From contig CANQXK010000017.1 in the NCBI GenBank assembly GCA_947627715.1, forward strand, positions 1 to 46,705: a stretch of DNA of 46,705 nucleotides, read 5' to 3'. This document shows positions 26,921 through 42,990 of the stretch, piece by piece. Every line of letters starts with the position of its first letter. The first letter of the stretch is position 1. The notes beneath the pieces were generated by a model. That model searched no databases and had not been told where the DNA came from. It saw only the letters and a program-made list of their open reading frames with translations. A program made the translations under genes and the position numbers. The stretch comes from an uncultured Oscillospiraceae bacterium (GTDB lineage Bacteria; Bacillota; Clostridia; Oscillospirales; Oscillospiraceae).

Positions 26921-26935
26921 ATGTAAATAGAAAAT

Positions 26936-27010: not shown

Positions 27011-27040
27011 ACGTCCTCACTGACGCCGCTTTACTTCGGG

Positions 27041-27392
27041 CTTCTTTCAGTCGCCCTCAGGCGCAGGCGTCGTTCGTCCTCTCCCCACGCAATCTCCGAT
27101 TGCGCGGGGACCCCGTTTGGAGTGGAAAGCGGCTGCCTCACGCCTCACACGCGGACTTCGCTCCTCCTCTCCCCACGCAATCTCCGATTGCGCGGGGACC
27201 CCGTTTGGAGTGGGGGGCGGCTGCCTCACGCCTCACACGCGGACTTCGCTCCTCCTCTCCCCACGCAATCTCCGATTGCGCGGGGACCCCGTTTGGAGTG
27301 GAAGGCGGCTGCCTCACGCCTCACACGCGGACTTCGCTCCTCCTCTCCCCACACGATTTTCAATCGTGCGGGGACCCCGGAGGACACAATAA
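27041..27392. repeat. Four 88-nt tandem repeats with a conserved hairpin
   Basis: Full units start at 27129, 27217 and 27305 (exact 88-nt period), preceded by an in-phase, 5'-diverged unit from about 27041 whose second half matches. Each holds a stem of seven pairs inside CCCC/GGGG arms. In the last unit the stem changes on both sides (CGCAATC/GATTGCG becomes CACGATT/AATCGTG), keeping pairing. The block fills the gap between tRNA-Gln and tRNA-Lys, and no gene is supported in it. Confidence 0.88.
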
Positions 27393-27402
27393 ACAAAAAT
27401 AT

Positions 27403-27478
27403 GACTTGGTAGCTCAGCAGGCAGAGCACCTGCCTTTTAAGCAGGGTGTCCCGGGTTCGAATCCCGGCCAGGTCACCA
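27403..27478 (+). tRNA. tRNA-Lys (TTT)
   Basis: Acceptor GACTTGG/CCAGGTC, anticodon loop CTTTTAA (TTT), T-loop GGTTCGAATC, encoded CCA. Confidence 0.95.
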
Positions 27479-29680: not shown

Positions 29681-30085
29681 TTATTGTTCCCGGAACCGGG
29701 CGGAAAGCTCCTTTGTATAGGCGAAGAAGTCGTCGAGGGAGTGAAAAACCGGGAGAAATCCGGGGTCGGGGAGGGCCAGGATGTTGAGAAACCCGTCGTC
29801 GGAGCCGCGCCCGTCCTGCGGCGCGTCCCTTTCCGGCGCGGCCCTCTCAGGCCCCCTGGGGGGCAGCCCGTCCGCCTCCCGCTCCAGCTCCTCCACGGCC
29901 CGGTCGGAATAAAAATGGTCGCGGAAAATGTGCCGAAGCTCGTGCTCCAGACACTCCTTCTGCCGTTGCGGGGAGAGGCGGCTGCTCAAATAGATGTCAA
30001 AGGTCCCGTCGTCGTTGGGAACGGTGACCCCCTCCACCGTGGGCGGGAAGTCAAGGATCCTGACAAAATACGCGGGAGTCCACAC
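29681..30085 (-). CDS. ImmA/IrrE family metallopeptidase-like protein
   Basis: A 134-residue protein with a zinc-protease motif HELRH (residues 48-52) in ECLEHELRHIFRDHFYSD, and downstream acidic residues (VEELEREAD) that could supply the third ligand. In ICEBs1 and phage systems ImmA cleaves the repressor encoded beside it to start induction. Here the repressor gene ends 3 nt before this GTG start, so they are one operon. A Pro/Arg/Asp-rich linker precedes a C-terminal tail. Repressor cleavage is inferred. Confidence 0.82.
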   Translation of the reverse strand: MWTPAYFVRILDFPPTVEGVTVPNDDGTFDIYLSSRLSPQRQKECLEHELRHIFRDHFYSDRAVEELEREADGLPPRGPERAAPERDAPQDGRGSDDGFLNILALPDPGFLPVFHSLDDFFAYTKELSARFREQ

Positions 30086-30088
30086 CGT

Positions 30089-30460
30089 TTACTCTCCCTG
30101 CTGCTCGGTGCGGCGAAGGGCCTCGATGATGGCGACGGCGCGCTCCACGTCCTTGGGGGTGGCGTCCTTGGCCAGGGAGAAGAGCATCCGGCACTCGCTG
30201 CGGGAGCGCAGCATATCCAGATACGACTCAAGCTCCGCGTCCACAGGGGCGGAGAAGGGCATACGGTCGGAACTCTCGCCCTTCAGATACGCCAGGGACA
30301 CGCCGAAGAAATCGGCGATCTTCTTGAGCGTCGAATCGCGGGGGACGCTGGAGCCGTTCTTCCAGGTGCTCAAAGCCGCCTGGGAAATGCCGGTGGCCTT
30401 GGACACGCGGTAGGAAGTAACACACTGTTCCTTGCAAAGCTGCACAAAAATTTCGTACAT
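30089..30460 (-). CDS. XRE family phage-type repressor
   Basis: A 123-residue protein. Its N-terminal helix-turn-helix is YRVSKATGISQAALSTWKNGSSVPRDSTLKKIADFFGVSLAYLKGE (about residues 17-62), followed by a short helical C-terminus and no LexA-type peptidase domain. It therefore needs the adjacent ImmA-like protein or another signal for release. It diverges from the structural cassette across a 250-bp control region and has TAGGAGTG as its ribosome site. Confidence 0.88.
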   Translation of the reverse strand: MYEIFVQLCKEQCVTSYRVSKATGISQAALSTWKNGSSVPRDSTLKKIADFFGVSLAYLKGESSDRMPFSAPVDAELESYLDMLRSRSECRMLFSLAKDATPKDVERAVAIIEALRRTEQQGE

Positions 30461-30505
30461 TTTTTGTTCACTCCTACAAATAATTAAAAATAATTAAAAA
30501 AGTAC

Positions 30506-30534
30506 TTGACTTTTGCGGCACGTGGAAGTATACT
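30506..30534 (+). promoter_or_regulatory. Promoter of the phage-derived structural operon
   Basis: TTGACT (30506-30511), 17-nt spacer, TATACT (30529-30534). The surrounding 30461-30713 has no gene. It includes AT-rich direct repeats (30477-30500) and a gapped palindrome TGAATAC...GTATTCA near 30560-30590 that may be repressor sites. Confidence 0.75.
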
Positions 30535-30713
30535 ACAGCTAACAAAGCAATACAAACGACTGAATACTTATATACTCAGCGTATTCAAGCTTTGATAACT
30601 TTCGTTCTTCGCGGCCACACAGCGGGAGCTTGTGCGATGGTTCCGATTAATTGAAGTATATCATATTTGTACAGCTTTGTCAACAATAGAATCTAAAGAA
30701 GGAGTGAACGAAT

Positions 30714-30935
30714 TTGAGCGGAGGCGGGAGAGCCTTTGTCAGGACCGAGTGGGAGGAGCGGGAGGGGCCGCCTGTTGGCGAGCGGTGTCAGAGGTGCCTG
30801 GAGGAGCTGACGGGCGGGGAGGTCTTTGGGCGGTGCGGCGAAAAGACGCTGTGCGCCTACTGCGCCGATGAGGAGTGGGCCGGCCTTTCCGGGGAGGAAA
30901 AGTTAGAGCTGCTGGGATATGAGGTGGTGAAGTAG
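30714..30935 (+). CDS. Small zinc-finger-like protein
   Basis: A 73-residue acidic protein with paired CxxC motifs (CQRC at 25-28 and CAYC near 47-50, with an extra Cys between). This implies one bound zinc. The TTG start is supported by AAGGAG nine bases upstream. It is the first gene after the divergent promoter and touches the next gene's start. It could be an early regulator or a structural helper; its function is not recognised. Confidence 0.65.
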   Translation: MSGGGRAFVRTEWEEREGPPVGERCQRCLEELTGGEVFGRCGEKTLCAYCADEEWAGLSGEEKLELLGYEVVK

Positions 30936-31337
30936 ATGAGCTATCCGTTGAAGAAGCTGGACGAGGGGATCGACCGGGCCATCGCCCACTGCATGGCCAC
31001 GGGGGAGGCCCCGGTGGGCTTTGTGCTCCACAAATTTCTCGACATACCCGAAAGTGAGCTGGCGCGATACCTGGAGGAGGGCGAGAAGGCACAGCGGGGA
31101 GAGGCCCCCTGGACGTCCGGCGTGAAGGGGCGGTTCCTGGCGGCGCGCCGCTGGGACGAGTTCAAGACGTTCTTTTGGCTGGACCGGGCGCAGAAGGACC
31201 CGAAGAACGCGAGCTTCGCCATGTTCAATCTGAAGCAGACCGAGAATGGCGGCTACGCGGAGAAGGAGGAAAAGGGGAAGAAGACCCCGGTAGTGGTGCG
31301 CCTGGACGGCGTGGGAGGGAAAGATGCGCTGCTTTGA
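30936..31337 (+). CDS. Putative terminase small subunit
   Basis: A 133-residue protein directly before the terminase large subunit. Position, length and mixed helical character (LHKFLDIPESELARYLEEGEKA; DEFKTFFWLDRAQKDPKNASFAMFNLKQ) suit a small terminase that recognises DNA for packaging. No strong family motif is visible, so the call rests mainly on synteny. The ATG follows the upstream stop immediately. Confidence 0.55.
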   Translation: MSYPLKKLDEGIDRAIAHCMATGEAPVGFVLHKFLDIPESELARYLEEGEKAQRGEAPWTSGVKGRFLAARRWDEFKTFFWLDRAQKDPKNASFAMFNLKQTENGGYAEKEEKGKKTPVVVRLDGVGGKDALL

Positions 31338-31391
31338 GAAAGGCGCGGCCCCTCCCGCCGCCGGGAAGCGCGTGGGAGAGGAGGGGGAGCG

Positions 31392-32756
31392 ATGGCGGAC
31401 GGGGCGGTGATCTTCGACCCGGGACAGGCCAGCGAGAAGCAGAAGCGGTTTTTCCTGGCCAGGGCGCCCTTTATCGCCTACGGCGGGGCCAAGGGCGGCG
31501 GAAAGACGTGGGCGGTGCGGGTCAAGGCGGTGGGCGGGGCCGTCATGAACCCCGGCCTCCGGGTGCTGATCATGCGCCGGACGTACCCGGAGTTAGAGGA
31601 GAACCACATCGGCCCCATCGTGCGCATGGTGCCGCCGGAGCTTGGCAGCTACCTGGCTGCCACCAGGCGCATGACCTTCTTCAACGGGTCCACGGTGAAA
31701 TTCGGCCACTGGCAGGGGGAGCTTTCGGAGCTTGAGTACCAGGGCCAGGAGTTCGACTGGATCTTCATCGACGAGGCGACGCAGTTCACGGAGCGCAGCT
31801 TCAACTACCTGAAGGGCTGTCTGCGCGGCGTGAGTCCCTATGACAAGCGTATGTACCTGACGTGCAACCCGGGAGGCGTTGGACACGGGTGGGTCAAGCG
31901 GCTTTTCATCGACCGGGACTACCGCCGGGGCGCGGAGGACCCGGAGGAGGACGAGGACCCGGCGGACTACGTCTTTATCCCCGCCACGGTGGAGGACAAC
32001 GTCTTTCTCCTGCGCTCCTCGCCCCACTACCTGAAGATGCTCTCCCAGATGCCGGAGAACGTGCGCCGGGCCTACCGCTACGGCGACTGGGACGCTCTGG
32101 GGGGCAGCTACTTCGACGAGTTCCGCTATGACCGGCACACCGTCCCCCCGGAGAAGCTCCCCGCCCACTGGCGGCGCTACCGGGCCATGGACTACGGCCT
32201 CGATATGCTGGCGGTGCTGTGGATCGCCGTGGACGAGGAGGGGCGCTGCCACGTCTACCGGGAGTGGACGAAGGAGAAGCTCATCGTCCGGGACGCGGCG
32301 GCAGGGATCCTGGAGCGGACGCTGCCGGGGGAGGACGTCCTGGCCACCTTCGCCCCGCCGGACCTGTGGAGCACCCAGAAGGACACGGGCAGGACCATGG
32401 AGGAGATCTTCCGCGCCTGCGGCGTGGCCCTTGTCAAGGCGGACAACAGCCGGGTCCAGGGACATATGCTCATCAAGGATATGCTGGCCCCGCGCCCGGA
32501 CGGGAGGCCGGGGCTGGAGATCTCCCGGACGTGCAAAAAGCTGATCGCCGACCTTGCCGCCATCCAGGCCGACGGGGACAACCCCAGCGACGCGGCAAAG
32601 ACTCCCCACGAGGTGACCCACACGGTGGACGCCCTGCGGTACTTCTGCGTCTCCCGCGTCTCTCCGGCGGACGCGCCGGGGGAGCGCGGGGCGGAGGAGG
32701 ACGGGGAGGACGACGGCCTTGGCGGGGAGCCGGACCTGGGGTATCTGATGTATTGA
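31392..32756 (+). CDS. Phage terminase large subunit
   Basis: A 454-residue packaging motor. Walker A is GGAKGGGKT at 31-39, and Walker B is IFIDE at 124-128 within EFDWIFIDEATQF. A coupling motif LTCNPGG lies near 155-161. A C-terminal RNase H-like nuclease begins with Asp267 in AMDYGLDMLAVLWI and later acidic residues (VKADNSRVQG, HTVDALRYF). Both domains look intact, so it could cut and package DNA. AGGGGAG precedes the ATG. It leads the late operon and defines the region as phage-derived. Confidence 0.95.
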   Translation: MADGAVIFDPGQASEKQKRFFLARAPFIAYGGAKGGGKTWAVRVKAVGGAVMNPGLRVLIMRRTYPELEENHIGPIVRMVPPELGSYLAATRRMTFFNGSTVKFGHWQGELSELEYQGQEFDWIFIDEATQFTERSFNYLKGCLRGVSPYDKRMYLTCNPGGVGHGWVKRLFIDRDYRRGAEDPEEDEDPADYVFIPATVEDNVFLLRSSPHYLKMLSQMPENVRRAYRYGDWDALGGSYFDEFRYDRHTVPPEKLPAHWRRYRAMDYGLDMLAVLWIAVDEEGRCHVYREWTKEKLIVRDAAAGILERTLPGEDVLATFAPPDLWSTQKDTGRTMEEIFRACGVALVKADNSRVQGHMLIKDMLAPRPDGRPGLEISRTCKKLIADLAAIQADGDNPSDAAKTPHEVTHTVDALRYFCVSRVSPADAPGERGAEEDGEDDGLGGEPDLGYLMY

Positions 32757-32762
32757 GAAAGG

Positions 32763-35696
32763 GTGAGAACAATAGCAAAAATCACAGCCAACGTGTCGGA
32801 GCGGGTGTTTAACATCACCAACTGGCACGGGGTGAACGAAGCGCCGGAGGGGGAGGCGCGGCTGCGGCTCGGCGAGGCGGCGGTGATGCGCAACTTCTGC
32901 GTGACGTCGGGCGGCGCGTTGAAGAAGAGGCCGGGGAGCCTCAATGTGGCGGGGCTGGTGACCCGGTACGTGGCCCACGTGAGGGAGGGGTCCCGGAAGC
33001 TGGCGCTGACGCAGCGGGGCCTTGCGGAGGGGCTGGAGATGCGCCCCCGCATCCTGGCGGACGACATGGGGAAGGTGGACCCGGCGGGGGACCCGGTGAC
33101 GGTGACGGCGGAGACGGCGAGCCAGTACAGGGGGTATTACTTCCAGACCGGCGGGGCCGCCTATGAGCTGGAGGAGTGCGCCGTCACCCCCGGCGAGGGC
33201 ACGGAGGCCATCGCCGGAGGCCGGGCGACGCCGGGGGAGCTGGCGGCCATCGCCTCCGGCACGGAGCGGTGGACCCAGTCCGGCGGGTCGGTCTTTGAGG
33301 GCGCGGAGAGGCTTGAGACCTTTGAGCGCGGCTTCATTCGCGGCGACGAACCCGGCGCGGACGGGGCCTCCACGGAGCGCCTGCCCCCCACGGGGACCGA
33401 GGTGGGCTTTGAGACGAAGGACCTGGGGGGCTATGTGATGCGCGGCGGCACGCTCCACCGCTACTACGGGGAGAAGGTGGAGGCGTATGAACCCACCTAC
33501 CGCTGGGACAAGTACAACTGTACCCGCACCAGGACGCCCTACACCTACTTCAGCCAGGGGACATACGAGTGGGTCCTGGGGCCGACAGACATGAGCGCCT
33601 CCAACTCCGGCTACACCTCCTACGAGTTTGACAGCCAGACCGGCGAGTTCACAAACGCCGGGAGCTTAAAGACCGTCGATCCCGGCGGGAGCGGGACGCT
33701 CTACCACGCGGAAGGGACGGGTCTTGCCAGGTGGAGGATCACCCGCGTGGACTCCACCCACTCCAACATCGACTATTACTTCCGCCGGTCGGAGAAGCAG
33801 ACGGGCTACAGCACCTCCTACTCACGGGGGAGCCGCGTCGGGGAGGTGGAGGTCCGGGAGGGGGACCGCCCGGAGGCGGACAGCGGCTTTCAGTATGTGA
33901 CCACCTTCAGCTCCGGCGGCCAGACCTACACCGTCATGCTCAGCGGTTCCACGTATTACTGCTATCTGAAGGACCAGGAGGCGGGCGTACAGAGCTATTT
34001 AAGGCGCTACAGCTTCCAGGGCTATCCGCTGGCGGTGGAGCCGGACACCTTCGAGTGGTACGGGAAGGAGACCTACGCCACCGCCGCGGACCCAAACGAC
34101 ATGGCGGTACGGGGCCTTTGGTCCGGCTACGTGGGAGGCCGGGAGGTGCTGTGCGCCGCGTGCAGCGGGACCCTGTGGGAACTCTCGTCGTCGCGGAAGC
34201 CGGGAGGAAGCACGGACGCGCCGGAGGTGTGGACAAAGCTGCCCTGCGGGGAGATGGACACCTCCAGGGACGTATATATGTTCGGCTTCGATGAGAAGCT
34301 CTACATCCTCAACGGCGAGAAGTACCTTGTCTGGGACGGGGAGAGGCTGGCGGAGGTGGAGGGCTACAGGCCCTTAGTGTCCGTCAGCGTGGAACCCACG
34401 GGGGGCGGGACGCTCCTGGAGAACGTCAACCGCCTCACGGCGGGGAAGCGGTGCTGGTTCTCCCCGGACGGGGAGGCCACGGTCTTCCAACTCCCGGAGG
34501 CGAACATCAAAAGCGTCGATTGGGTGGAGAGCCGCCTGGACGGCGTTGACCTGCCCGCCTTCGCCGTGGACCCGGAGGCCGGGACGGTGACATTTGAGAC
34601 GCCCCCGGAGAAGGGAGTCAGCACCCTGGAGATCGCCTGGACGGGGGCGGAGAGCTTCCGGGGGCAGGTGTGCGCCATGCGGTTTGCGGAGCTTTACAAC
34701 GGGGCGCAGGATTCGCGGGTGTTCCTCTACGGGGACGGGACCAACCGGGCCATCTACTCCGGCCTTGACCACGACGGCAGGCCGCGGGCGGACTACTTCC
34801 CGGACCTCTACGAGGTGGCGGTGGGGGACGCCAACACGCCTCTCACGGCCATGATCCGCCACTACAACAAGCTGATGGCCTTCAAGCCGGACTCCGCCTG
34901 GAGCATCGGCTACGACACCATCACCCTCATAGACGGGACGGTGACGGCGGGGTTCTACGTGGCCCCGGTGAACAGGTCCATCGGCAACTGCGCCTGGGGA
35001 CAGGCACAGCTGGTGCAAAATAGGCCCCGGACCCTGGACGGGCGCAGCGTCATGGAGTGGAAGGCCACCAGCTCCAGCGGCATCACCGGGGACCAGCGCA
35101 ACGCCGAGCGGGTGAGCCAGCGGGTGGATTCCTCCATCCGGCAGTTCGACCTGACGAAGGCCCGGACCTTCTACGACAAGTTCAGCCACGAGTACTACGT
35201 CATCGGGGAGGACGGCACGGCCATCGTGCAGAATCTGGACGTGGACGCCTGGTATGTGTACACGGGGCTTGATGTGACGTGCATGATCAACTACGCCGAC
35301 GAACTCTACTACGGCACGCGGGACGGGTTCCTGCGGCACTTCTCGGAGCGGTACTTCTCGGACAACGGGGAGGTCATCGACGCCTATTGGGAATCCGGGG
35401 CCATGGGCTTTTCGGCGGACTTTAAGCGCAAGTACTCCGCCATGCTGTGGCTGGGCATCAAGCCGGAGGACAACGGGTATCTGGAGGTGACGGCCCAGAC
35501 GGACAGGAAGAGCGACTTTGCCGTCTACGACGTCCGCGCCGCCGGGGCCAACCGGGTGCCGGAGATGGAGCGGGTGAAGCTCAAGGCCAAGAAATTTACG
35601 TACTACAAGCTCATTTTGCGCAACGCCACCGCCGACAGAACGGCCACGGTGGTGTCGGCGGATCTGAGGATTCGCGGGGCCGGCTACGTCCGGTGA
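32763..35696 (+). CDS. Large virion protein, P22 gp10-like DNA stabilisation/tail accessory protein
   Basis: A 977-residue protein rich in beta strands. Its opening EARLRLGEAAVMRNFCVTSGGALKKRPGSL is the typical N-terminus of podoviral packaged-DNA stabilisation proteins (P22 gp10 type), which seal the portal. The middle has many Tyr/Ser/Thr/Gly-rich strands (TYRWDKYNCTRTRTPYTYFSQGTYEWV) that may form a receptor-facing insert. The C-terminal part has propeller-like strands (FLYGDGTNRAIYSGL, YDTITLIDGTVTAGFYVAP). It is far longer than P22 gp10 (about 470 residues). The start is doubtful: GTG at 32763 directly abuts its GAAAGG, while an ATA at 32772 has better spacing. Confidence 0.65.
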   Translation: MRTIAKITANVSERVFNITNWHGVNEAPEGEARLRLGEAAVMRNFCVTSGGALKKRPGSLNVAGLVTRYVAHVREGSRKLALTQRGLAEGLEMRPRILADDMGKVDPAGDPVTVTAETASQYRGYYFQTGGAAYELEECAVTPGEGTEAIAGGRATPGELAAIASGTERWTQSGGSVFEGAERLETFERGFIRGDEPGADGASTERLPPTGTEVGFETKDLGGYVMRGGTLHRYYGEKVEAYEPTYRWDKYNCTRTRTPYTYFSQGTYEWVLGPTDMSASNSGYTSYEFDSQTGEFTNAGSLKTVDPGGSGTLYHAEGTGLARWRITRVDSTHSNIDYYFRRSEKQTGYSTSYSRGSRVGEVEVREGDRPEADSGFQYVTTFSSGGQTYTVMLSGSTYYCYLKDQEAGVQSYLRRYSFQGYPLAVEPDTFEWYGKETYATAADPNDMAVRGLWSGYVGGREVLCAACSGTLWELSSSRKPGGSTDAPEVWTKLPCGEMDTSRDVYMFGFDEKLYILNGEKYLVWDGERLAEVEGYRPLVSVSVEPTGGGTLLENVNRLTAGKRCWFSPDGEATVFQLPEANIKSVDWVESRLDGVDLPAFAVDPEAGTVTFETPPEKGVSTLEIAWTGAESFRGQVCAMRFAELYNGAQDSRVFLYGDGTNRAIYSGLDHDGRPRADYFPDLYEVAVGDANTPLTAMIRHYNKLMAFKPDSAWSIGYDTITLIDGTVTAGFYVAPVNRSIGNCAWGQAQLVQNRPRTLDGRSVMEWKATSSSGITGDQRNAERVSQRVDSSIRQFDLTKARTFYDKFSHEYYVIGEDGTAIVQNLDVDAWYVYTGLDVTCMINYADELYYGTRDGFLRHFSERYFSDNGEVIDAYWESGAMGFSADFKRKYSAMLWLGIKPEDNGYLEVTAQTDRKSDFAVYDVRAAGANRVPEMERVKLKAKKFTYYKLILRNATADRTATVVSADLRIRGAGYVR

Positions 35697-35713
35697 CGCG
35701 GGAAAGGAGAAAC

Positions 35714-35902
35714 ATGGATAATTTAAGCAGCCGTCTCTCGGCGCTTCTCAGCGTCAAGAGCATCGTGACCATCGCGCTGACGGCGGTGTTCGCCTTCCTC
35801 TCCCTGAGAGGGGGCGTGGGGCAGGACTTTATGACCATCTACGCGGTGATCATCGCCTTTTATTTCGGGACCCAGAGCGCCAGGGAGAAGAAGGAGGAGT
35901 GA
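35714..35902 (+). CDS. Holin-like small membrane protein
   Basis: A 62-residue protein with two hydrophobic stretches (SIVTIALTAVFAFLSL and FMTIYAVIIAFYFGT) and a charged C-terminus (SAREKKEE), the layout of small phage holins. AAAGGAG precedes the ATG. It sits apart from the lysin (5.4 kb downstream), so another membrane role is possible. Confidence 0.6.
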   Translation: MDNLSSRLSALLSVKSIVTIALTAVFAFLSLRGGVGQDFMTIYAVIIAFYFGTQSAREKKEE

Positions 35903-35905
35903 GGT

Positions 35906-36877
35906 ATGGCGGTTTCGGTCTATGACCGGCAGTTTTTGACCGACGAACAGAAAGAGAAGCTCCGGGCCATCACGGAGGAGTGGCAAAGGGCCAGCGCCGC
36001 CGGGGACAGGGCGGGGATGGACTCGGCCCACGCCGCGGCGGAGCGGGTGAGGGCGGAGGCCGGCTACGGCGGCGGGGCGGACGGCTCGCTATACCTGCCC
36101 TCCGCCTCCGCCGGGAGCGGCTATGTCCCCGAAAAGAGGACCGGCTACCGGCCTCAGACAGAGGCGGTGGACCGCCTCTACGACGCGTCGCGCGATCTGA
36201 AGCTGGCGGAGCTGAAAACGGCCTTTGACAAAAACGCCGCCGCGCTGGAGGCCGAGGGGGAGGCCATCCCAGGCCTTTATCAGGCCGGGCGCAACGACGT
36301 GTCCGCTCGGAGCGAGCTTGCCGGGAAGAACTTCAACGAGTACGCCGCCGCCTCCGGCCTCAACACCGGCGCCGCGGGGCAGGAGGCCCTCGCCCGCTCC
36401 AACCAGCTCCAGAAGGACCTGGGGGAGCTGGACGCCGGGGAGGCGGAGGCCCAGCGCGACCTTCTTGCCCGCAGGACGGCGCTGAACACCAAATACGCCG
36501 ACGACATCGCCGCCGCCGTGGCCCAGGGGGAGGCGGACCGCGCCCAGGCGCTTTTGGAGGAGTACCGCCGGGCGGAGGAGTCCAGGGTCAGCGTCTCCGA
36601 GAGCCTGGCGCAGGAGAATTACCGGGCCTACGAGTCCGCCGTGGCGGCGGCCAGGACGGCGGCGGAGAAGAGCGACGCCTCGGCCAAGGCCCAGAAGGAG
36701 CGGGCGGAGAGGCTGGCGGGGTTCGGGGACTTTTCCGGCTACGCCGCCCTTGGCTACTCCGAGGAGGAGATCGGCGCGATGAAGAGGGCCTGGATCAGCA
36801 AAAACCCGCTGACGGCCTACTACACAGGGGCCATCAGCGCGGAGGAGTACAGGAGGCTCACGGGGAAAAAGATATGA
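35906..36877 (+). CDS. Ala/Glu-rich coiled-coil phage protein, possible internal/ejection protein
   Basis: A 323-residue protein. Residues 8-70 carry a helical module followed by AGYGGGADGSLYLP, a motif seen in many Firmicutes phage structural proteins. Residues about 85-300 are an almost continuous amphipathic helix rich in Ala, Glu and Arg, with Gly breaks at ASGLNTGAAGQEALARSNQ. Ejection proteins of short-tailed phages have this composition and position near the portal, but this is inference. It ends by overlapping the next gene (ATGA). Confidence 0.5.
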   Translation: MAVSVYDRQFLTDEQKEKLRAITEEWQRASAAGDRAGMDSAHAAAERVRAEAGYGGGADGSLYLPSASAGSGYVPEKRTGYRPQTEAVDRLYDASRDLKLAELKTAFDKNAAALEAEGEAIPGLYQAGRNDVSARSELAGKNFNEYAAASGLNTGAAGQEALARSNQLQKDLGELDAGEAEAQRDLLARRTALNTKYADDIAAAVAQGEADRAQALLEEYRRAEESRVSVSESLAQENYRAYESAVAAARTAAEKSDASAKAQKERAERLAGFGDFSGYAALGYSEEEIGAMKRAWISKNPLTAYYTGAISAEEYRRLTGKKI

Positions 36878-37116
36878 CGACGGTTGACATCATACTTGTC
36901 CTGCTGGCGCTGCTTCTCTTTGAAGCGGCGGTCCTGGCGGGCATGAGGATCGGAAGGGCGCTCCACGGGGAGCGGAGGGGCCAGGGGGAAAAAGGCCCCG
37001 AAAGCGCCGAGAGCGCGGATTACGAGCGGCGCTGGCAGGAGGGCATCGACGCCATGCTGGGCTACGATGTGAGAAAGGCCAGGAGCGCCGCGGGGAGGGA
37101 TCTGGATGAGAGATGA
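36874..37116 (+). CDS. Small single-TM phage-cassette protein
   Basis: An 80-residue protein with an N-terminal helix (VDIILVLLALLLFEAAVLAGM) and a charged soluble tail (ERRGQGEKGPESAESADYERRW). It overlaps its neighbours on both sides (4 nt upstream, 11 nt into the portal gene), showing tight operon structure. No function recognised. Confidence 0.6.
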   Translation: MTTVDIILVLLALLLFEAAVLAGMRIGRALHGERRGQGEKGPESAESADYERRWQEGIDAMLGYDVRKARSAAGRDLDER

Positions 37117-38698
37117 CCTGCTGCGGGGAAAGCCCGCCGGCGGCGCGGGAGCGCGGACGGACCCCTATGGGGAGGGGCGCGCCTGGGAGTTGACCCCGGA
37201 GGCGGTGTGGACCCTCTACGACAGGGGCCGGGCCTTCAAGGAGGCCATCGACCTCTATGAGACGGTGAACACCAACGAAAATTTCTTCATCGGCAAGCAG
37301 TGGGAGGGGGTGCGGTCCAACGGACTGCCCACGCCGGTATTCAACATCCTCAAGCGCGACGTGTGCTTCGTGGTCAGCTCCATCACCTCGGACAACCTGA
37401 AGGTGCAGGCGTCGCCCCTGGCCTCCACCCCCAACACGGCGGCCCTCTCAGGCCCGGCGCGGGTGCTCAACGAGGAGTTTGAGAGCTTGTTTGAGCATAA
37501 CCGCCTGCCGGCGCTGCTGCGGGAGTTTGCCAGGGACGCGGCGGTGCGGGGGGACGGGTGCCTCTACACCTGGTGGGACCCGGAGGAGAAGAACGGCGGT
37601 CCGGTGGACGGGGCCATCCGCACGGAGATCCTGCCCAACACCCGCGTCCACTTCGGCAACCCCAACGACCGCCGGGTCCAGGAGCAGCCCTATATGATCC
37701 TGGAGAGCCGCGAGATGGTGAGCGAGCTTCGCCGGCGCGCCCGCGACTTCGGAAGCCCCGACTGGGACGGGATCGTCCCGGACGGCGACAACACCCACCC
37801 GGGGGAGGAGCGGCGCACGGACGACAAGGTCACCAAGCTCCTGCTCCTGTGGCGGGACCGGGAGAGCGGGGAGATCTGGGGGTACGAGTGTACCCGCTCT
37901 GCCCTGGTGAGGGACCCCTTCCCCCTGGGACTGCGCCGCTACCCGGTGGTGTGGATGAGCTGGGACTACGTCCAGGACTGCTGCCACGGCCAGGCGATGC
38001 TCACCGGCCTCATCCCCAACCAAATCTTCATCAACAAGATGTGGGCCATGAGTATGCTGTCGCTGATGACCACGGCCTACCCCAAGATCATCTACGACAA
38101 GACGCGCATCCCCAAGTGGACCAACCAGGTGGGGCAGGCCATCGGCGTCATGGGCGGGGACGTGGGCACAGCGGCCCGGTCCGTCTCCCCCGCGGTGATC
38201 TCCCCCCAGGTGACCCAGTTCATCGAGGCGGCCATCGATCAGACCAACCGCAACCTGGGCACCACCAGCGCGGCCCTGGGGGATGTGGCCCCGGACAACA
38301 CCTCCGCCATCATCGCCCTTCAGCGGGCGGCGTCCACCCCCAGCGAGATCACAAGGCAGAACCTCCGGGAAGCGGTGGAGGAGCTGGCGCGGATATACCT
38401 CGACTTTATCGCCGGGTTCTACGGGGTGAGGACGGTGGATTCGGAGGACGGCGCCGCCGTGCCCTTTGACTTCGGCCTCTTCAAGAACCTGCCCATGGCG
38501 CTGAAGATCGACGTGGGGGCCAGCGCATACTACTCGGAGATCGCCTCCATCCAGACCCTGGACAACCTGCTCCGCCAGGGGAGGATCGACATCGTCCAGT
38601 ACCTGGAGAGGATCCCCGACGGGTACATCACCGACAGGAGCGGACTTATTGAGGAGATCAAAAAAGCAAGAGAGGAGAGTGCGACTCATGGAGAATGA
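37106..38698 (+). CDS. Phage portal protein (P22-like)
   Basis: A 530-residue protein. The early block AFKEAIDLYETVNTNENFFIGKQWEGVRSNGLPTPVFNILKRDVCFVVSSI and the middle VWMSWDYVQDCCHGQAMLTGLIPNQIFINKMWAMSMLSLMTTAYPKIIYD are typical of portal proteins of gut short-tailed phages. Twelve copies form the DNA channel at the capsid vertex, where the terminase docks. The length fits a portal without a fused domain. It lies after the ejection-like genes, an order unlike P22, where the portal follows terminase directly. Confidence 0.85.
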   Translation: MRDDLLRGKPAGGAGARTDPYGEGRAWELTPEAVWTLYDRGRAFKEAIDLYETVNTNENFFIGKQWEGVRSNGLPTPVFNILKRDVCFVVSSITSDNLKVQASPLASTPNTAALSGPARVLNEEFESLFEHNRLPALLREFARDAAVRGDGCLYTWWDPEEKNGGPVDGAIRTEILPNTRVHFGNPNDRRVQEQPYMILESREMVSELRRRARDFGSPDWDGIVPDGDNTHPGEERRTDDKVTKLLLLWRDRESGEIWGYECTRSALVRDPFPLGLRRYPVVWMSWDYVQDCCHGQAMLTGLIPNQIFINKMWAMSMLSLMTTAYPKIIYDKTRIPKWTNQVGQAIGVMGGDVGTAARSVSPAVISPQVTQFIEAAIDQTNRNLGTTSAALGDVAPDNTSAIIALQRAASTPSEITRQNLREAVEELARIYLDFIAGFYGVRTVDSEDGAAVPFDFGLFKNLPMALKIDVGASAYYSEIASIQTLDNLLRQGRIDIVQYLERIPDGYITDRSGLIEEIKKAREESATHGE

Positions 38699-39179
38699 GG
38701 AGAGAGACTGGTTCACCCAGGGCTGGGGCGACGACGGCGTCGTCAGCGACAGCCGGGAGGAAGAGGCGCTGCCGGAGGAGACCCCGGAGGGCGGGGAAGC
38801 CGCCCTGCCTGAAGGGGATGCCGCGGCGGGGAAGGCCGCCCCCTCCGGGGAGGGCTGGGAGAAAGAGGCCGGGGCGGCCATGACGGCGGGGCCGGCGTCT
38901 GCCGGAGGGGAGAGCCGGGAGGCGGACTTCATCCGCTTTATCAACGAGTACCCCCAGGTGGAGGCCGGGGACATCCCCCCGGAGGTCTGGCAGAGGGTGA
39001 AGAGCGGGGAGAGCCTTGTGACGGCCTACGCCCGGTACGAGGCCAGGACCCTCCGGGAGGAGAACCGGCGTCTCCGCCAGACGCAGGAGAACCGCTTCCG
39101 CTCCGCCGGAAGCCAGCGGGGGACCGGCTCCGCCGCGCCCCGTCGGGACGCCTTTGAAGAGGGGTGGGAGGTGGAGTGA
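38688..39179 (+). CDS. Scaffold-like acidic protein
   Basis: A 163-residue protein with a very acidic, Gly/Ala/Pro-rich N-terminal half and a helical C-terminal half (ESREADFIRFINEYPQVEAGDIPPEVWQRVKSGESLVTAYARYEARTLREENRRLRQTQENRF). This organisation and its place between portal and capsid fit a capsid scaffolding protein. It overlaps the portal gene by 11 nt. No sequence motif proves it. Confidence 0.6.
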   Translation: MENEERDWFTQGWGDDGVVSDSREEEALPEETPEGGEAALPEGDAAAGKAAPSGEGWEKEAGAAMTAGPASAGGESREADFIRFINEYPQVEAGDIPPEVWQRVKSGESLVTAYARYEARTLREENRRLRQTQENRFRSAGSQRGTGSAAPRRDAFEEGWEVE

Positions 39180-39221
39180 GCCGGCGAAAAATGGCCGCGC
39201 CATTTTTCTGCCAAAGAAGAG

Positions 39222-39360
39222 AGCCTTCGTTAAGGCGCTGCCTTCCCCGCAGGGCGGGGAAGGTGTCGCCGGAGGCGACGGATGAGGTGGGGACCCCGAC
39301 GCGTGACAGCCTCATCCGGCCCCCTTTGGGGGCCACCTTCCCCACAAGTGGGGAAGGCAT
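39222..39360. repeat. Palindromic repeat, copy 1 (between scaffold and capsid genes)
   Basis: About 140 nt containing three stem-loops: CCTTCCCCGC/GCGGGGAAGG, TCGCC/GGCGA, and CCTTCCCCAC/GTGGGGAAGG, with a GGCCCCC/GGGGGCC stem. It is nearly identical to 39398-39537 (offset 176). No gene is present in 39180-39581. Confidence 0.9.
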
Positions 39361-39397
39361 TGGAAGCGCGAACGGGAGTGCCTACATAATGGGGGAA

Positions 39398-39537
39398 CGC
39401 CTTCGTTAAGGCGTTGCCTTCCCCGCAGGGCGGGGAAGGTGTCGCCGGAGGCGACGGATGAGGTGGGGACCCCGGCGCGTGACAGCCTCATCCGGCCCCC
39501 TTTGGGGGCCACCTTCCCCACAAGTGGGGAAGGCTTA
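39398..39537. repeat. Palindromic repeat, copy 2
   Basis: The second direct copy of the element, with only a few substitutions from copy 1. It ends 44 nt before the capsid start codon. Confidence 0.9.
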
Positions 39538-39581
39538 AAAGGAAAAAACAATTTTAATTTATAAAAAGGAGAAAATGAAGT

Positions 39582-40415
39582 ATGGCAATCAATCTGGCAA
39601 AAAGAGCATCGGACAAGGTGGTTGAGAGATTCAAGCTGGGCTCCTGCACCGAGGGGATCTTCTCCAACCGTTGGAAGTGGACGGGCGTTAGCACCGTGCA
39701 GGTGTACTGCGTGGACAAGCTGCCCCTCCAGGACTACGACAAGGCCAAGGAGGACGGCAGCCGCTTCGGGACGCTCACAGAGCTGGGCGACACCGTCCAG
39801 GAGATGACCGTCATGGACGACAAGGCCTTCAACGGCTCCATCGACAAGGGCAACAACACCGCGCAGATGATGATCAAGGCGGCCTCCAGCGTGCTGCGTC
39901 GTCAGACCGACGAGGTGATCATCCCCTACGTGGACAAGTACCGCCTCAACAAGCTGGCCGCCGGGGCGGGCCTCACCGGCGCGAATGTGGCCCTCACGAA
40001 GGAGAACGCCATCGAGACCATCATGAAGGCCGGGGCGGAGATGAGCAATCAGAAGGTGCCCAGGGACGGGCGCGTCCTCTACATCGGCGAGAGCGAGGCC
40101 ATCAAGGTCAAGCTGGCCGACCAGGTGGTGGGCGCGGACAAGCTCTGCGGGGAGGTCCTTGTCTCCGGCGTGTGCGGCACCATCGACGGGATGCAGGTGA
40201 GGGTCGTGCCCGACGACTATATGCCGGAGAACGTGGTCTTTATGATCGTCCGCCGGGGCTGCGCCGTGGCCCCGAAGAAGATCGAGACTTACCGCATTCT
40301 GGAGGAGCACCCCGACATCGACGGCGCGGTGGTCCAGGGACGGCTTCTCCACGACTGCTTCGTGCTGGAGCCTCTGGAGGCCGGCATCTATGTGGGCAAG
40401 TCCTCCGGCGAATGA
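39582..40415 (+). CDS. Phage major capsid protein
   Basis: A 277-residue protein with HK97-type features: an N-terminal arm (ASDKVVERFKLGSCTEGIFSNRWKWTGVSTVQVYCVDKL), a helix-rich P-domain (NAIETIMKAGAEMSNQKVPRDGRVLYIGESEAIKVK) and a final beta segment (HPDIDGAVVQGRLLHDCFVLE). AAAGGAG lies upstream of the ATG. The protein looks complete. It is separated from the scaffold gene by 400 nt of palindromic repeats, unusual for a head operon. Confidence 0.82.
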   Translation: MAINLAKRASDKVVERFKLGSCTEGIFSNRWKWTGVSTVQVYCVDKLPLQDYDKAKEDGSRFGTLTELGDTVQEMTVMDDKAFNGSIDKGNNTAQMMIKAASSVLRRQTDEVIIPYVDKYRLNKLAAGAGLTGANVALTKENAIETIMKAGAEMSNQKVPRDGRVLYIGESEAIKVKLADQVVGADKLCGEVLVSGVCGTIDGMQVRVVPDDYMPENVVFMIVRRGCAVAPKKIETYRILEEHPDIDGAVVQGRLLHDCFVLEPLEAGIYVGKSSGE

Positions 40416-40447
40416 GCCGCTGAGGGCGTGAAAGGTACGTAAAATAA

Positions 40448-40469
40448 GCCGCCCCGGAAACGGGGCGGC
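40448..40469. terminator. Terminator between capsid and antitoxin genes
   Basis: A 9-bp GC stem (40448-40456 with 40461-40469), 4-nt loop. The T-rich side (TTATTTT) is on the minus strand, so it mainly ends the toxin-antitoxin transcript. Confidence 0.7.
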
Positions 40470-40481
40470 GGAGGAACAGGG

Positions 40482-40745
40482 TCATTTGGCCAACTTGTAG
40501 AGCATGTATTGGTTGAGGCTGACCCCCTCGGCGGCGGCCTTGCGCTTCAGGTCGCGGTGGAGACTGCGGGGGATCCGCAGGACGAGGCGGCCGCTGTAGT
40601 CCTCCAGAGAACGCTCAAAGTCCTCAAGGCCTACAAGGGTACCGTCGTTGACGGTCTCGGCCTCGGCCAGCATGGCGAGATCGACGGCGTCAGGCTCCTC
40701 CGTGGGGAGCGAGGCGATTTTCTTTTCAAATTCTTCACGGTCCAT
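40482..40745 (-). CDS. HicB/CopG-like ribbon-helix-helix antitoxin
   Basis: An 87-residue protein. The acidic N-terminal part would cover the toxin, and the C-terminal GRLVLRIPRSLHRDLKRKAAAEGVSLNQYMLYKLAK is a classic Arc/CopG/HicB-type ribbon-helix-helix DNA-binding domain. It starts one base inside the toxin stop (TAATG), so the pair is translationally coupled with the toxin first. It should repress the pair's promoter. Confidence 0.85.
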   Translation of the reverse strand: MDREEFEKKIASLPTEEPDAVDLAMLAEAETVNDGTLVGLEDFERSLEDYSGRLVLRIPRSLHRDLKRKAAAEGVSLNQYMLYKLAK

Positions 40746-40999
40746 TATCTGTACCTCCTGTATTTGATGTTGGTCCTGGTGTTGATGGTCTCAACGATGA
40801 TGATCTCCCCGCCGCTGTATCTGAAAATAATGCGGTAATGGTCGATCTTGCACCTGAAAAGGTCCTTTGTGCCCGAAAGCCTGACGATGTCTCCCTTGAG
40901 TTCGCAAATTCCTCTCAAGGCGCGTTCGAGCTTTTCGCGTGTGGGTTGATCGAGACTGCTCAGGTATTTTCTGGGCTGTTTCTCCAATCTGATCTCCAT
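40745..40999 (-). CDS. RelE/ParE family toxin
   Basis: An 84-residue protein of RelE/ParE fold: MEIRLEKQPRKYLSSLDQPTREKLERALRGICELKGDIVRLSGTKDLFRCKIDHYRIIFRYSGGEIIIVETINTRTNIKYRRY. The DLFRCKIDHYRIIF strand and terminal RRY match mRNA-interferase type members, though ParE gyrase poisons look similar. It lies on the opposite strand inside the phage-derived operon. Confidence 0.88.
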   Translation of the reverse strand: MEIRLEKQPRKYLSSLDQPTREKLERALRGICELKGDIVRLSGTKDLFRCKIDHYRIIFRYSGGEIIIVETINTRTNIKYRRYR

Positions 41000-41028
41000 C
41001 TGTGCGTCTCCTTATATAGGATATGCAT

Positions 41029-41057
41029 ATAGTATCATAAATAGTACCGATTGTCAA
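41029..41057 (-). promoter_or_regulatory. Promoter of the toxin-antitoxin pair
   Basis: Minus-strand TTGACA (41057-41052), 17-nt spacer, TACTAT (41034-41029). TACTAT also occurs once inside the spacer, a possible antitoxin half-site. AAGGAG precedes the toxin ATG. Confidence 0.82.
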
Positions 41058-41077
41058 CAGGAAGGACGTGGTTTTTA

Positions 41078-41305
41078 TTGGACTGGACAAGCATTGTGGT
41101 GGCGGTGGTCACCGGGGGGCTGGCGTTTCTGGGCGTGCTGGTGGCGAACCGCAAGACCGGGGCGCTTATCGCCTACCGCCTTGAGCAGTTAGAGGCGAAG
41201 GTGGACAAGCACAACCACTTCGCCGAGCGGATGCCCGTGGTGGAGGAGCAGATCAAGGTTGCCAATCACCGCATCGAGGACCTTGAAAGGAAGGTGGAGA
41301 CGTGA
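41078..41305 (+). CDS. XhlA-like/holin-associated membrane protein
   Basis: A 75-residue protein with an N-terminal helix (DWTSIVVAVVTGGLAFLGVLVAN) and a coiled-coil tail (LEQLEAKVDKHNHFAERMPVVEEQIKVANHRIEDLERKVE). This is the standard small protein before lysins in Clostridia phages. It is started from TTG at 41078 with AGGAAGG upstream. Its stop overlaps the lysin start (GTGA). Confidence 0.78.
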   Translation: MDWTSIVVAVVTGGLAFLGVLVANRKTGALIAYRLEQLEAKVDKHNHFAERMPVVEEQIKVANHRIEDLERKVET

Positions 41306-42051
41306 CGGAGAACGAGCTTCGGCGAAATGTTGTAAGCATCATCAACTCCTGGCTGGGGGCCACGATGGGGTCCAACAAGCATCGGGAGATTTTGAACATC
41401 TACAACGCCTACAAGCCCCTGGCGAGGGGGTACAAGGTGCAGGTGGGCGATTCCTACTGCGCCATCACCGTCTCGGCGGCGTGGATCAAAGCCGGGATCG
41501 CGGAGTACACAGGCACCGAATGTTCCTGTAACGAGCTTATCCGTATTGCCGCTTCAAAGGGAATCTGGCAGGAGCGGGACGACTACGCTCCGAAAATCGG
41601 GGACGCGGTACTCTACGACTGGCAGGACAGCGGCAAGGGCGACAACGTGGGACAGGCTGACCACATCGGCATCGTGGTCAGCGTGACCGGGGACGGCTTC
41701 ACCGTCACGGAGGGGAACACCTCCGGCGGGAAGGTCGCTCAAAGGAATATGCGGGTCGATGGGGTAAAGATCCGGGGGTTTATCTGCCCGGACTACAAGG
41801 CGATCGCTGAGATCATGTCTCGAAAGGAGGAGGACAATATGACTGGCGAACAAATCCTGAAGAAAATCAACGAATATCTATCTGCCCAGAAGGTGCCCGA
41901 CTGGGCCGAAGGGGAGCTTGCGGAGGCGGTGCGGCTTGGCATCACAGACGGGTCGAACCCCACGGGGCTTATACCCCGCTATCAGGCGGCCATCATGGCA
42001 AAGCGGGCGGCGGAGACTTACAACAAAGGGAAGCGAGGAGAGAACGGTTGA
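41302..42051 (+). CDS. CHAP-domain endolysin
   Basis: A 249-residue enzyme. The N-terminal CHAP amidase/endopeptidase domain has catalytic Cys53 in GDSYCAITVSAAW and His121 in ADHIGIVV. The C-terminal part (about 180-240) has VPDWAEGELAEAVRLGITDGSNPTGLIPRYQAAIMAKRAAE, an SLH-like wall-binding motif. It should cleave peptidoglycan cross-links for lysis. The GTG start overlaps the upstream stop. Confidence 0.88.
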   Translation: MTENELRRNVVSIINSWLGATMGSNKHREILNIYNAYKPLARGYKVQVGDSYCAITVSAAWIKAGIAEYTGTECSCNELIRIAASKGIWQERDDYAPKIGDAVLYDWQDSGKGDNVGQADHIGIVVSVTGDGFTVTEGNTSGGKVAQRNMRVDGVKIRGFICPDYKAIAEIMSRKEEDNMTGEQILKKINEYLSAQKVPDWAEGELAEAVRLGITDGSNPTGLIPRYQAAIMAKRAAETYNKGKRGENG

Positions 42052-42458
42052 AAACAGGAACGGAAATATTTGACGCGGCGATGGGCCTCATGGACGAGCT
42101 GGACGGCGCGGGGAACCCGGAGAACCGGGACACGGAGGAGTACAGGAACCGGGCGCTGGGGATCGTGAACATGATGATCTGCGAATACAGGATCCTGGCG
42201 GGACTTCAGGGGGAGTTTGCGGGGGCGGCGGCCCTGGAGGACCCCATCCCGGAGATGGACGACGCCTACACGCTGGGGGCCATGCAGTACGGGCTGGCGG
42301 CGAACCTGCTGGTGGACGAGAACCCCGCCGCGGCGGCCTTCTTTCAGCAGAGGTACGAGGAGCTGAGGAACCTCTTCTTCGCCCGCAGGGAATGCGGGGG
42401 AGAGGAGATCGAGAACCTCTACGGGGGAGTTGAGTTCGGGAGGTTTGGCCACTGGTGA
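42048..42458 (+). CDS. Late phage protein, possible gp4-like head completion/adaptor protein
   Basis: A 136-residue helical protein (KTGTEIFDAAMGLMDELDG; EYRNRALGIVNMMICEYRILAG; AYTLGAMQYGLAANLLVDENPAAAAFFQQRYEELRNLF). Size and helical character suit a head-tail adaptor such as P22 gp4, the partner of a gp10-like protein. It lies after the lysin, unlike the usual place beside the portal. The TTG start overlaps the lysin stop (TTGA). It is the last gene of the cassette. Confidence 0.5.
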   Translation: MKTGTEIFDAAMGLMDELDGAGNPENRDTEEYRNRALGIVNMMICEYRILAGLQGEFAGAAALEDPIPEMDDAYTLGAMQYGLAANLLVDENPAAAAFFQQRYEELRNLFFARRECGGEEIENLYGGVEFGRFGHW

Positions 42459-42939
42459 GGGGCCTCGCCCCGGCGGGGGGTGTCACGGAAGACCCCGTGA
42501 CGGGGGTTGGCCGCTGCGTGACCGGGATTTTGCCTCCAACCGAAGGCGGGGTGGTTGACGTGACCACGGCAAGAGGTGTCCGCCCGGAGGGCGGGCGGGG
42601 AGCGCCGGGGAGGCCCGGCGGGGGATTTACTTTCCTCTTTTCGGATTCCCAAAAAGAGAGAAAGTAACAAAGGAGAAAAAGGAACCAAGGGGGATTTCGA
42701 TTTTCCCCCTTGGAACCCCTTTTAAAAACGACCAGCTTAGGGGGCCTGCGGGCCCCCTGCTGGACACACCCCCGGGGGGAGCGCCCCGACGGAGGTGCGG
42801 CTATCTTCGGGGCGTATTGGCGCCCCTCTCTGAGGGGAGCTGTCGAGCGAAGCGAGACTGAGGGGAGCGCGTTCCCCGCGCCCAGCTCCCCTCCGGCCCT
42901 ACGGGCCACCTCCCCTCAGAGAGGGGAGGCAATTCCCAC

Positions 42940-42990
42940 CTCATCCGTCGCCTGCGGCGACACCTTCCCCGCCCTGCGGGGAAGGCATTC
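42940..42990 (-). repeat. Inverted copy of the scaffold-capsid palindromic repeat
   Basis: The reverse complement of this stretch matches 39240-39290 and 39416-39466 with about one mismatch, including the CCTTCCCCGC stem and TCGCC stem. Confidence 0.85.

What the first reader, a model, noticed from the sequence alone, without database searches (positions are those of the whole stretch)
29681..42458. Compact phage-derived packaging and lysis cassette without integrase or replication genes
Seen: repressor and ImmA-like protease genes diverge from a promoter that directly drives terminase, a gp10-like protein, ejection-like, portal, scaffold-like, capsid, XhlA, CHAP lysin and adaptor-like genes, all with intact motifs. 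The cassette is about 12.8 kb. No integrase, excisionase, polymerase, helicase, tailspike or tape measure is present between the regulators and the end of the cassette. Known: temperate podoviruses carry those modules, while gene transfer agents and domesticated capsid elements often do not. Inference: this may be an inducible particle-forming element that packages host or satellite DNA, or a minimal phage whose replication is supplied in trans. The gene order (portal late, adaptor after lysin) is also unusual.
Basis: partly seen in the sequence, partly recalled or inferred. Interest (0 to 1): 0.78.

Follow-up and report, generated by a model that had tools for sequence, protein, structure and literature searches.

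The report
Inherited phage-like DNA-packaging gene cluster
A gut bacterium carries a compact, old phage-derived gene cluster that looks able to build, fill and release short-tailed virus-like particles but not to copy or insert itself, and its relatives appear to have passed it down with the chromosome, as expected for a gene transfer agent.

Summary
The 12.8-kb cassette is real and is no lone deletion derivative. Its portal occurs in 30 of 34 genomes of the host genus (21 of 21 high-quality ones), once in 27 of the 30. Capsid, portal and terminase trees share far more splits with the host rpoB tree than chance gives. All 72 gene-pair dN/dS values are below 0.5. Fourteen of 14 core-clade loci keep the odd gene order; 8 of 11 share SDR/PPK on the right. 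No recombinase hit lies inside a cassette. Two free relatives examined carry replication genes. Two face-to-face promoters are kept in 13 of 13 species aligned. The 977-aa protein folds like P22 gp10. Best reading: a domesticated podovirus element working like a gene transfer agent, of the kind of FpGTA of Faecalibacterium (PMC12946183). Induction, host-DNA packaging and transfer are inferred. The window copy lacks the tail-fibre block of most relatives and may adsorb poorly. Related gene blocks occur across the host order.

The parts
29681..30085 (-). ImmA/IrrE-like metalloprotease (134 aa)
   Evidence: M78 3.2e-4, phrog_20936 2e-9
30089..30460 (-). Cro/CI-type repressor (123 aa); 91-99% identical in the 6 nearest species, about 65-75% in the other core-clade species and G320
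   Evidence: HTH_3 1e-10; identities
30506..30534 (+). rightward promoter TTGACT-17-TATACT, kept in 13 of 13 species aligned
30655..30683 (-). leftward promoter TTGACA-17-TATACT facing the first, kept in 13 of 13 species aligned
30714..30935 (+). 73-aa protein, function unknown, present in near relatives
30936..31337 (+). probable small terminase (133 aa), alignable with small proteins in the same place in free phages
   Evidence: no family hit; alignment A5; helical model pLDDT 82
31392..32756 (+). terminase large subunit
   Evidence: PF04466 6.5e-12, phrog_979 1.7e-45
32763..35696 (+). tail nozzle, P22 gp10-like fold, 977 aa
   Evidence: model, Foldseek, lengths
35741..35902 (+). 53-aa membrane protein, possible holin
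   Evidence: phrog_13256 9e-19; beside the lysin in G270 and G302
35906..36877 (+). 323-aa coiled protein, possible ejection protein
   Evidence: no family hit; homologues in phages and relatives
36874..37116 (+). 80-aa protein with N-terminal membrane segment
37106..38698 (+). P22-type portal
   Evidence: PF16510 1.5e-18, phrog_156 6e-26
38691..39179 (+). probable scaffold protein
   Evidence: position and homologues; no family hit
39582..40415 (+). major capsid protein
   Evidence: phrog_422 3.8e-38
40482..40745 (-). HicB-type antitoxin
   Evidence: PF05534 8e-12
40745..40999 (-). RelE/ParE-type toxin
   Evidence: phrog_1213 2.4e-11, PF05016 5e-5
41051..41305 (+). XhlA-like lysis protein
   Evidence: phrog_1863 3.8e-14
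41302..42051 (+). CHAP endolysin
   Evidence: PF05257 4.8e-7
42048..42458 (+). head-tail adaptor-like protein (136 aa), last gene
   Evidence: no family hit; homologues in phages and relatives

Best explanation
It is a domesticated short-tailed (podovirus) element, inherited with the chromosome, that works like a gene transfer agent. Likely steps: a Cro/CI repressor keeps one strong rightward promoter shut; when the ImmA-like protease is activated (signal unknown) the repressor is removed and the operon is read; portal, scaffold and capsid form heads; the terminase subunits fill them from DNA at hand, mostly host chromosome because the element has no replication genes; adaptor, nozzle and ejection-like protein close and tail the head; XhlA-like protein or a holin plus the CHAP lysin burst the cell. 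Shown: gene set, nozzle fold, co-descent with the host, purifying selection, conserved promoters, no recombinase hit in cassettes. Inferred: induction, particles, host-DNA packaging, delivery. The window copy lacks the tail-fibre block and may adsorb poorly, or by its longer nozzle.
For: Portal in 30 of 34 genus genomes and 21 of 21 high-quality ones; capsid in 28 of 34, 20 of 21. Tree splits shared with rpoB: capsid 12 of 22, portal 14 of 23, TerL 10 of 16; label-shuffled means about 0.2, maxima 3-4. 72 of 72 dN/dS below 0.5; capsid dS is 0.3-1.2 times that of rpoB in the eight pairs where both exist. Order TerL-gp10-portal-scaffold-capsid in 14 of 14 core-clade loci that hold it on one contig; SDR and/or PPK to the right in 8 of 11. 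No recombinase hit inside a cassette in 53 genus stretches, 765 kb; tyrosine profile leave-one-out 20 of 20. No exact repeat of 12 bp or more shared by the flanks within about 2 kb. Promoters kept in 13 of 13 species aligned while sequence between them diverges. A phage-type copy in genome G314 carries RusA, primase/ATPase and helicase next to its terminase; IMG/VR relative L094 carries Erf and a DnaC-like loader. Third-position GC 0.89 against 0.86 in 11 host genes. An element of this kind is reported to package host DNA: FpGTA (PMC12946183).
Against: No particle or DNA-content data. Position and gene order differ between subclades, and viral contigs fall inside the genus-wide trees (L037, L040, L094 for portal; L094, L042 for capsid), so several domestications or gene exchange with phages are possible outside the core clade. 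Serine recombinases lie within 1 kb of the cassette ends in G302, G181 and G327. One PHROG labelled 'DNA polymerase' matches 4 of the 78 cassette ORFs (7.8e-13); which ORFs was not resolved; Pfam showed no polymerase among the 25 of 32 families listed. The window copy lacks tail-fibre genes; fibre N-terminus and a neighbouring small gene were not found elsewhere in its genome (no positive control). The small terminase may still recognise a specific site; its fold search found nothing. Other cassette genes have dS up to about four times that of rpoB, and gp10, ejection-like and scaffold genes evolve fast. Within the core clade the distance correlation with rpoB is weak for capsid (r 0.31, p 0.02) and not significant for gp10 and adaptor.
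Confidence: 0.7

Rival explanations
1. A conserved killing particle of PBSX type: phage-like particles filled with host DNA that kill relatives and deliver nothing.
For: Same genome signature: fixed, vertical, no replication or integration genes; relatives vary much in the fibre block. The FpGTA authors leave this open for their element too.
Against: Short-tailed type (nozzle fold), no long-tail genes seen; the window copy has no fibre, which a killing particle would need (inference).
Confidence: 0.15
2. A phage satellite or replication-deficient phage that relies on a helper for replication and movement.
For: Phage-type copies of the same group occur in the genus (G314, G312).
Against: Satellites as recalled carry integrases; no hit here. 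Helper-like second copies in 2 or 3 of 34 genomes against 30 with a portal. No att-like repeats; descent follows the host.
Confidence: 0.06
3. Independent prophage remnants, each decaying after separate integrations.
For: Several chromosomal positions and gene orders among subclades; viral rows inside the genus trees.
Against: Core-gene frames open in the loci read, dN/dS below 0.5 in 72 of 72, shared flanks and tree congruence in the core clade, promoters kept in 13 of 13. Outside the core clade separate domestications remain possible.
Confidence: 0.07

Closest known systems
FpGTA of Faecalibacterium (PMC12946183; outline with abstract, sections 9, 10 and 26, and find passages read)
   Same: Compact podovirus-type cluster with TerS, TerL, portal, scaffold and capsid, no replication genes, in all 12 Faecalibacterium genomes its authors examined; gut Clostridia; particles and about 9-kb DNA shown by its authors.
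   Different: FpGTA is split into a 10.5-kb and a 5.5-kb locus, the second with fibre, receptor-binding and lysis genes; here regulators, head, tail and lysis are in one locus. Sequence homology could not be tested: no named Faecalibacterium sequence was reachable.
RcGTA and other alphaproteobacterial GTAs (recalled)
   Same: About 14-15-kb fixed cluster, vertical, no integrase or replication genes.
   Different: Siphovirus-like with a tail tube; other host phylum; controlled by host regulators, not by a phage-type repressor and protease.
PBSX of Bacillus subtilis (recalled; mentioned)
   Same: Fixed phage-like element in a Gram-positive host; packages host DNA.
   Different: Long contractile tail (recalled); here a short-tail gene set.
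Phages of the same group (IMG/VR contigs such as L094, L039, L081, L101; phage-type copy L200 in G314; Oscillibacter valericigenes locus L172)
   Same: Homologous terminase and portal, and in most also capsid, adaptor, nozzle.
   Different: IMG/VR contigs of 34-40 kb; replication genes in L094 and L200; tyrosine recombinase in 4 of 14 viral stretches scanned, none of which covers a whole phage.
Bacillus megaterium Page-like podoviruses
   Same: Nearest named isolated phages by portal, about 27% identity.
   Different: About 40-kb phages; far relatives only.

Membership tests
Gene transfer agent | Phage head/packaging genes with no integrase or replication module | tested here: met
   one unresolved PHROG label 'DNA polymerase' in 4 of 78 relatives' ORFs, none in the window
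Gene transfer agent | Vertical inheritance at a fixed place in a host clade | tested here: met
   Met in the core clade for descent and in 8 of 11 loci for place; position differs between subclades
Gene transfer agent | Genes maintained by purifying selection | tested here: met
   72 of 72 dN/dS below 0.5
Gene transfer agent | Particles package mostly random host DNA, too little to hold the whole cluster | not testable with these tools
   needs particles
Gene transfer agent | Particles deliver DNA to recipient cells | not testable with these tools
   needs transduction assay
FpGTA (podovirus-type GTA-like element) | Sequence homology to FpGTA operon I proteins | not testable with these tools
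FpGTA (podovirus-type GTA-like element) | Small terminase without obvious DNA-binding domain | tested here: inconclusive
   Helical model, no PDB match at E 0.001
Temperate prophage | Integrase, attachment repeats, replication genes | tested here: not met
Phage satellite (PICI-like) | Own integrase and mobility; helper dependence | tested here: not met
   No recombinase hit in cassettes; helper dependence itself not tested
P22 gp10-type nozzle | Fold of the short-tail nozzle | tested here: met
   SU10 2.4e-16, P22 gp10 1.4e-12 (TM 0.64 by target length), T7 1.5e-10

The most novel reading that the evidence does not exclude
This cassette is one branch of an ancient family of podovirus-type gene transfer agents spread through the host's whole bacterial order, mostly inherited with the chromosome and sitting among housekeeping genes, of which FpGTA is the only member so far shown to make particles.
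Probability: 0.4. Interest if true: 0.88.

Novelty: new variant of a known kind. Interest (0 to 1): 0.76.

Why it matters
By the account of PMC12946183, very few gene transfer agents are known outside Alphaproteobacteria, and FpGTA is the first podovirus-like one. The same study saw GTA-like packaging in Oscillospiraceae (3 of 25 events), and of the four MAGs it names as searched for operons one, a Faecalibacterium MAG, held a strong candidate. A conserved, regulated, all-in-one cassette in an Oscillospiraceae genus, with related blocks across the order, offers a sequence signature for such operons, and makes testable how old gene transfer agents in gut Clostridia are and whether they drive gene flow there.

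Tried and rejected
Lone deletion derivative, assembly artefact: rejected. Recombinase as part of the element: rejected for G302, where the serine recombinase lies in an insert that sister G270 lacks (G181 shows the same genes, but its contig starts inside them), and for G327, where it lies about 0.4 kb behind the last cassette gene and has no counterpart in sister G117. A weaker serine-recombinase hit in G270 (L214 1094-2896) lies about 7 kb outside the cassette and was not followed. Attachment repeats: none. Small-terminase fold: no match. Fibre N-terminus elsewhere in the window's genome: nothing found, no positive control; a collagen-repeat ORF on another contig (C13) was not followed. Homology to FpGTA: untestable here. 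The number of genomes without a match inside each of those families is not listed, so near-universality there is only an impression from the hit list. Searches for prior reports; apart from PMC12946183 the listings (titles and starts of abstracts only) showed no such element in Oscillospiraceae. One search was a mistaken query (a 20-aa placeholder) and wasted one search.

Full report
Observation. From left to right: ImmA-like protease and repressor (leftward); then rightward a 73-aa protein, a probable small terminase, terminase, a 977-aa protein, three small or coiled proteins, portal, scaffold-like, capsid, XhlA-like, CHAP lysin and adaptor-like protein (families). A HicB/RelE-type pair lies antisense between capsid and lysis genes. 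The 977-aa protein has no Pfam hit and one PHROG hit labelled amidase (8.3e-8), but its predicted structure (mean pLDDT 87.8) matches podovirus nozzles: SU10 at 2.4e-16, P22 gp10 at 1.4e-12, T7 at 1.5e-10; beta-propeller proteins such as DDB1 follow at 1e-7 and weaker. It is 875-1040 aa in the core-clade loci listed and mostly about 600-700 aa in free phages, with exceptions (L037, L045, L094 are 880-993).

Distribution in the genus. The portal was sought in all 34 held genomes of the genus: 30 match, and 21 of 21 that are at least 90% complete with at most 5% contamination. Three genomes (G304, G312, G314) have two copies; the other 27 have one, G321 being counted as one gene split over two contig ends. 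The four without a match are 72-87% complete. The capsid is in 28 of 34 and 20 of 21. Most named records of the same group are uncultured Oscillospiraceae MAGs called Lapin-..., so rabbit gut (my inference from the French word).

Descent. Trees of rpoB and TerL, portal and capsid agree well. Splits shared with rpoB: capsid 12 of 22 (25 genomes), portal 14 of 23 (26), TerL 10 of 16 (19); with shuffled labels the means are about 0.2 and the maxima 3-4. Over all genomes, distances correlate with rpoB (r 0.61-0.88 for nine genes, p 0.0003 or less); within the core clade this is weaker (capsid r 0.31, p 0.02), and for gp10 and adaptor not significant. In nine near pairs, all 72 dN/dS estimates (Nei-Gojobori, my script, best local match of each gene) are below 0.5: capsid 0.02-0.16, terminase 0.03-0.19, portal 0.03-0.21, nozzle 0.08-0.31, scaffold up to 0.50. 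Capsid dS is 0.3-1.2 times that of rpoB in the eight pairs where both exist; other genes run from about 0.3 to about 4 times. The pairs are not independent.

Place and order. In the 14 core-clade loci with terminase to capsid on one contig, all 14 have the order TerL-gp10-portal-scaffold-capsid. Of 11 core-clade loci with the right flank visible, SDR and/or PPK follows in eight (window, G311, G310, G317, G316, G020, G322, G324) and not in G117, G327 and G326; G321 is undecided, its contig ends too soon. G117, G327 and G315 share a release-factor gene on the other side. In the outgroups G302, G181 and G270 a 7-8-kb version (TerS-TerL-portal-capsid-adaptor-gp10-lysis, no repressor beside it) sits next to host genes.

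No mobility genes. Among 78 ORFs in or behind cassettes, the 25 most frequent of 32 Pfam families include no recombinase and no polymerase. The PHROG scan of the same 78, of which 25 of 113 families are shown, is mostly tail fibre and holin, but lists one family labelled DNA polymerase with 4 members (7.8e-13); I could not resolve which ORFs these are. Repeats of collagen type, present in 8 of the 78, may be the cause (inference). A profile built from 20 tyrosine recombinases of these genomes (leave-one-out 20 of 20) finds one hit in 53 genus stretches (765 kb), about 7 kb outside the G327 cassette. A serine-recombinase profile (two sequences, no control) finds four, all outside cassettes: G327 (about 0.4 kb off), G302 and G181 (about 0.9 kb off) and G270 (about 7 kb off). 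For G302 the insert that holds it is absent in sister G270, which has the same upstream gene straight before the cassette; G117 lacks the one of G327. The flanks of the window cassette share no exact repeat of 12 bases or more within about 2 kb.

Contrast with phages. In G314 a second, phage-type copy has RusA, a primase/ATPase protein and a helicase next to its terminase; G312 has a second copy of the same type. The IMG/VR relative L094 (34-kb contig) carries Erf and a DnaC-like loader. Of 14 viral stretches scanned, four hold a tyrosine recombinase; these stretches do not cover whole phages. In G303, by contrast, host genes (methyltransferase, MurT, glutamine amidotransferase, ECF transporter) run up to the terminase.

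Regulation. Between repressor and first gene lie two near-consensus promoters that face each other. Both are present in 13 of 13 species aligned while the sequence between them diverges; G320 and G306, which also have a repressor-like gene, were not in that alignment. Inverted repeats of 8-12 bases flank the rightward promoter in G324, G326 and G020, with different letters in each, as expected of operators that change with their repressor (inference).

Tail fibres. Most core-clade relatives carry, between capsid and lysis genes, a block with collagen-repeat or other fibre proteins, Peptidase_G2 or DUF6273-type tips, and often a holin. The nearest relative G311 has a short fibre start only, and the window copy has none; neither the fibre N-terminus nor a neighbouring small gene was found elsewhere in its genome (no positive control). 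So the window copy may be impaired in adsorption although its core genes are under constraint.

Limits of the vertical reading. In the genus-wide portal tree viral contigs L037, L040 and L094 fall inside the genus clade, and L094 and L042 do so for the capsid. The capsid clade of 20 core genomes is free of viral rows (SH-aLRT 96). Within that clade the case for one domesticated element is strong; deeper in the genus several domestications or exchange with phages cannot be excluded.

Beyond the genus. With a portal profile, 135 of 394 genomes of the order match at 1e-10 or better (102 of 315 high-quality; 53 of 168 genera), mostly once. Of 40 such loci fetched, chosen mainly for lying well inside contigs, most in families f13, f16, f19, f20 and f26 hold the portal with scaffold, adaptor and nozzle, and usually terminase and capsid, in about 5-9 kb; in the six f16 loci the terminase model did not hit, G410, G580 and G602 do not fit, and capsids in f16, f19 and f20 match the window-type model weakly or not at all. 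Genes within 4.5 kb of the f13 and f19 blocks (134 ORFs) are largely housekeeping, such as lepA, hemW, gtrA, enolase, phosphoglycerate mutase and ftsK (25 of 108 families shown). Portal shares 22 of 33 splits with rpoB over 36 genomes, TerL 20 of 30 over 33; shuffled maxima 3. Against this: G542 (which has a second copy) and G632 look phage-like by their flanks, with weak serine-recombinase hits, and recombinase hits lie in the stretches of G362, G599 and G580. In the window's family, 54 of 300 genomes match the window's portal (33 of 189 high-quality); G098 and G015 have host genes next to the terminase end of the cassette. Host-specific phages could give part of this pattern, so the order-wide claim is the novel case, not the verdict.

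Known work. PMC12946183 (outline with abstract, find passages, sections 9, 10 and 26 read) describes FpGTA of Faecalibacterium as the first podovirus-like GTA-like element, with about 40-nm particles and about 9-kb DNA. It also reports GTA-like packaging in Oscillospiraceae (3 of 25 events); of the four MAGs it names as searched, one, a Faecalibacterium MAG, gave a strong candidate operon. The present cassette fits that kind, differs in having regulators, head, tail and lysis in one place, and is in another genus. Homology to FpGTA could not be tested.

Verdict. What it packages and whether it delivers DNA are open.

Noticed in passing
window 39223-39534 and 42935-42987: A 136-bp repeat stands twice, 40 bp apart, between scaffold and capsid genes, and 53 bp of it stand inverted behind the last cassette gene: a dispersed repeat bracketing the capsid-lysis part.
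   Followed up: no
window 26713-27465: A family of repeats (76-99% identical) lies among five tRNA genes upstream of the cassette.
   Followed up: no
window 40482-40999; L221 5043-5582: A HicB/RelE-type toxin-antitoxin pair sits antisense inside the cassette, also in G321, where about 3 kb with fibre genes separate it from the capsid gene.
   Followed up: partly
window 32763-35696: The nozzle protein is longer (875-1040 aa) in core-clade cassettes than in most free phages, which points to an inserted part; it could take over receptor binding.
   Followed up: partly
L202, L204, L213 repressor-operon intergenic regions: Inverted repeats at the rightward promoter differ in letters between species, as if operator and repressor change together.
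   Followed up: partly
L215 5167-7847, L216 1670-4353: A ParB-like gene and a serine recombinase lie next to the cassette in G302, with matching genes in G181, in an insert not present in G270.
   Followed up: partly
L200 5250-9489: A phage-type copy with RusA, primase/ATPase and helicase genes and a portal about 72% identical to the window's lies in G314 besides its cassette copy.
   Followed up: partly
78 ORFs of alignment A1: One PHROG family labelled DNA polymerase matches 4 of the 78 ORFs in or behind cassettes of relatives; which ones, and whether the label is right, is unknown.
   Followed up: no
G000 contig C13 5953-6429 (L297): A collagen-repeat ORF of 417 aa elsewhere in the window's genome; whether it is a tail fibre was not checked.
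   Followed up: no
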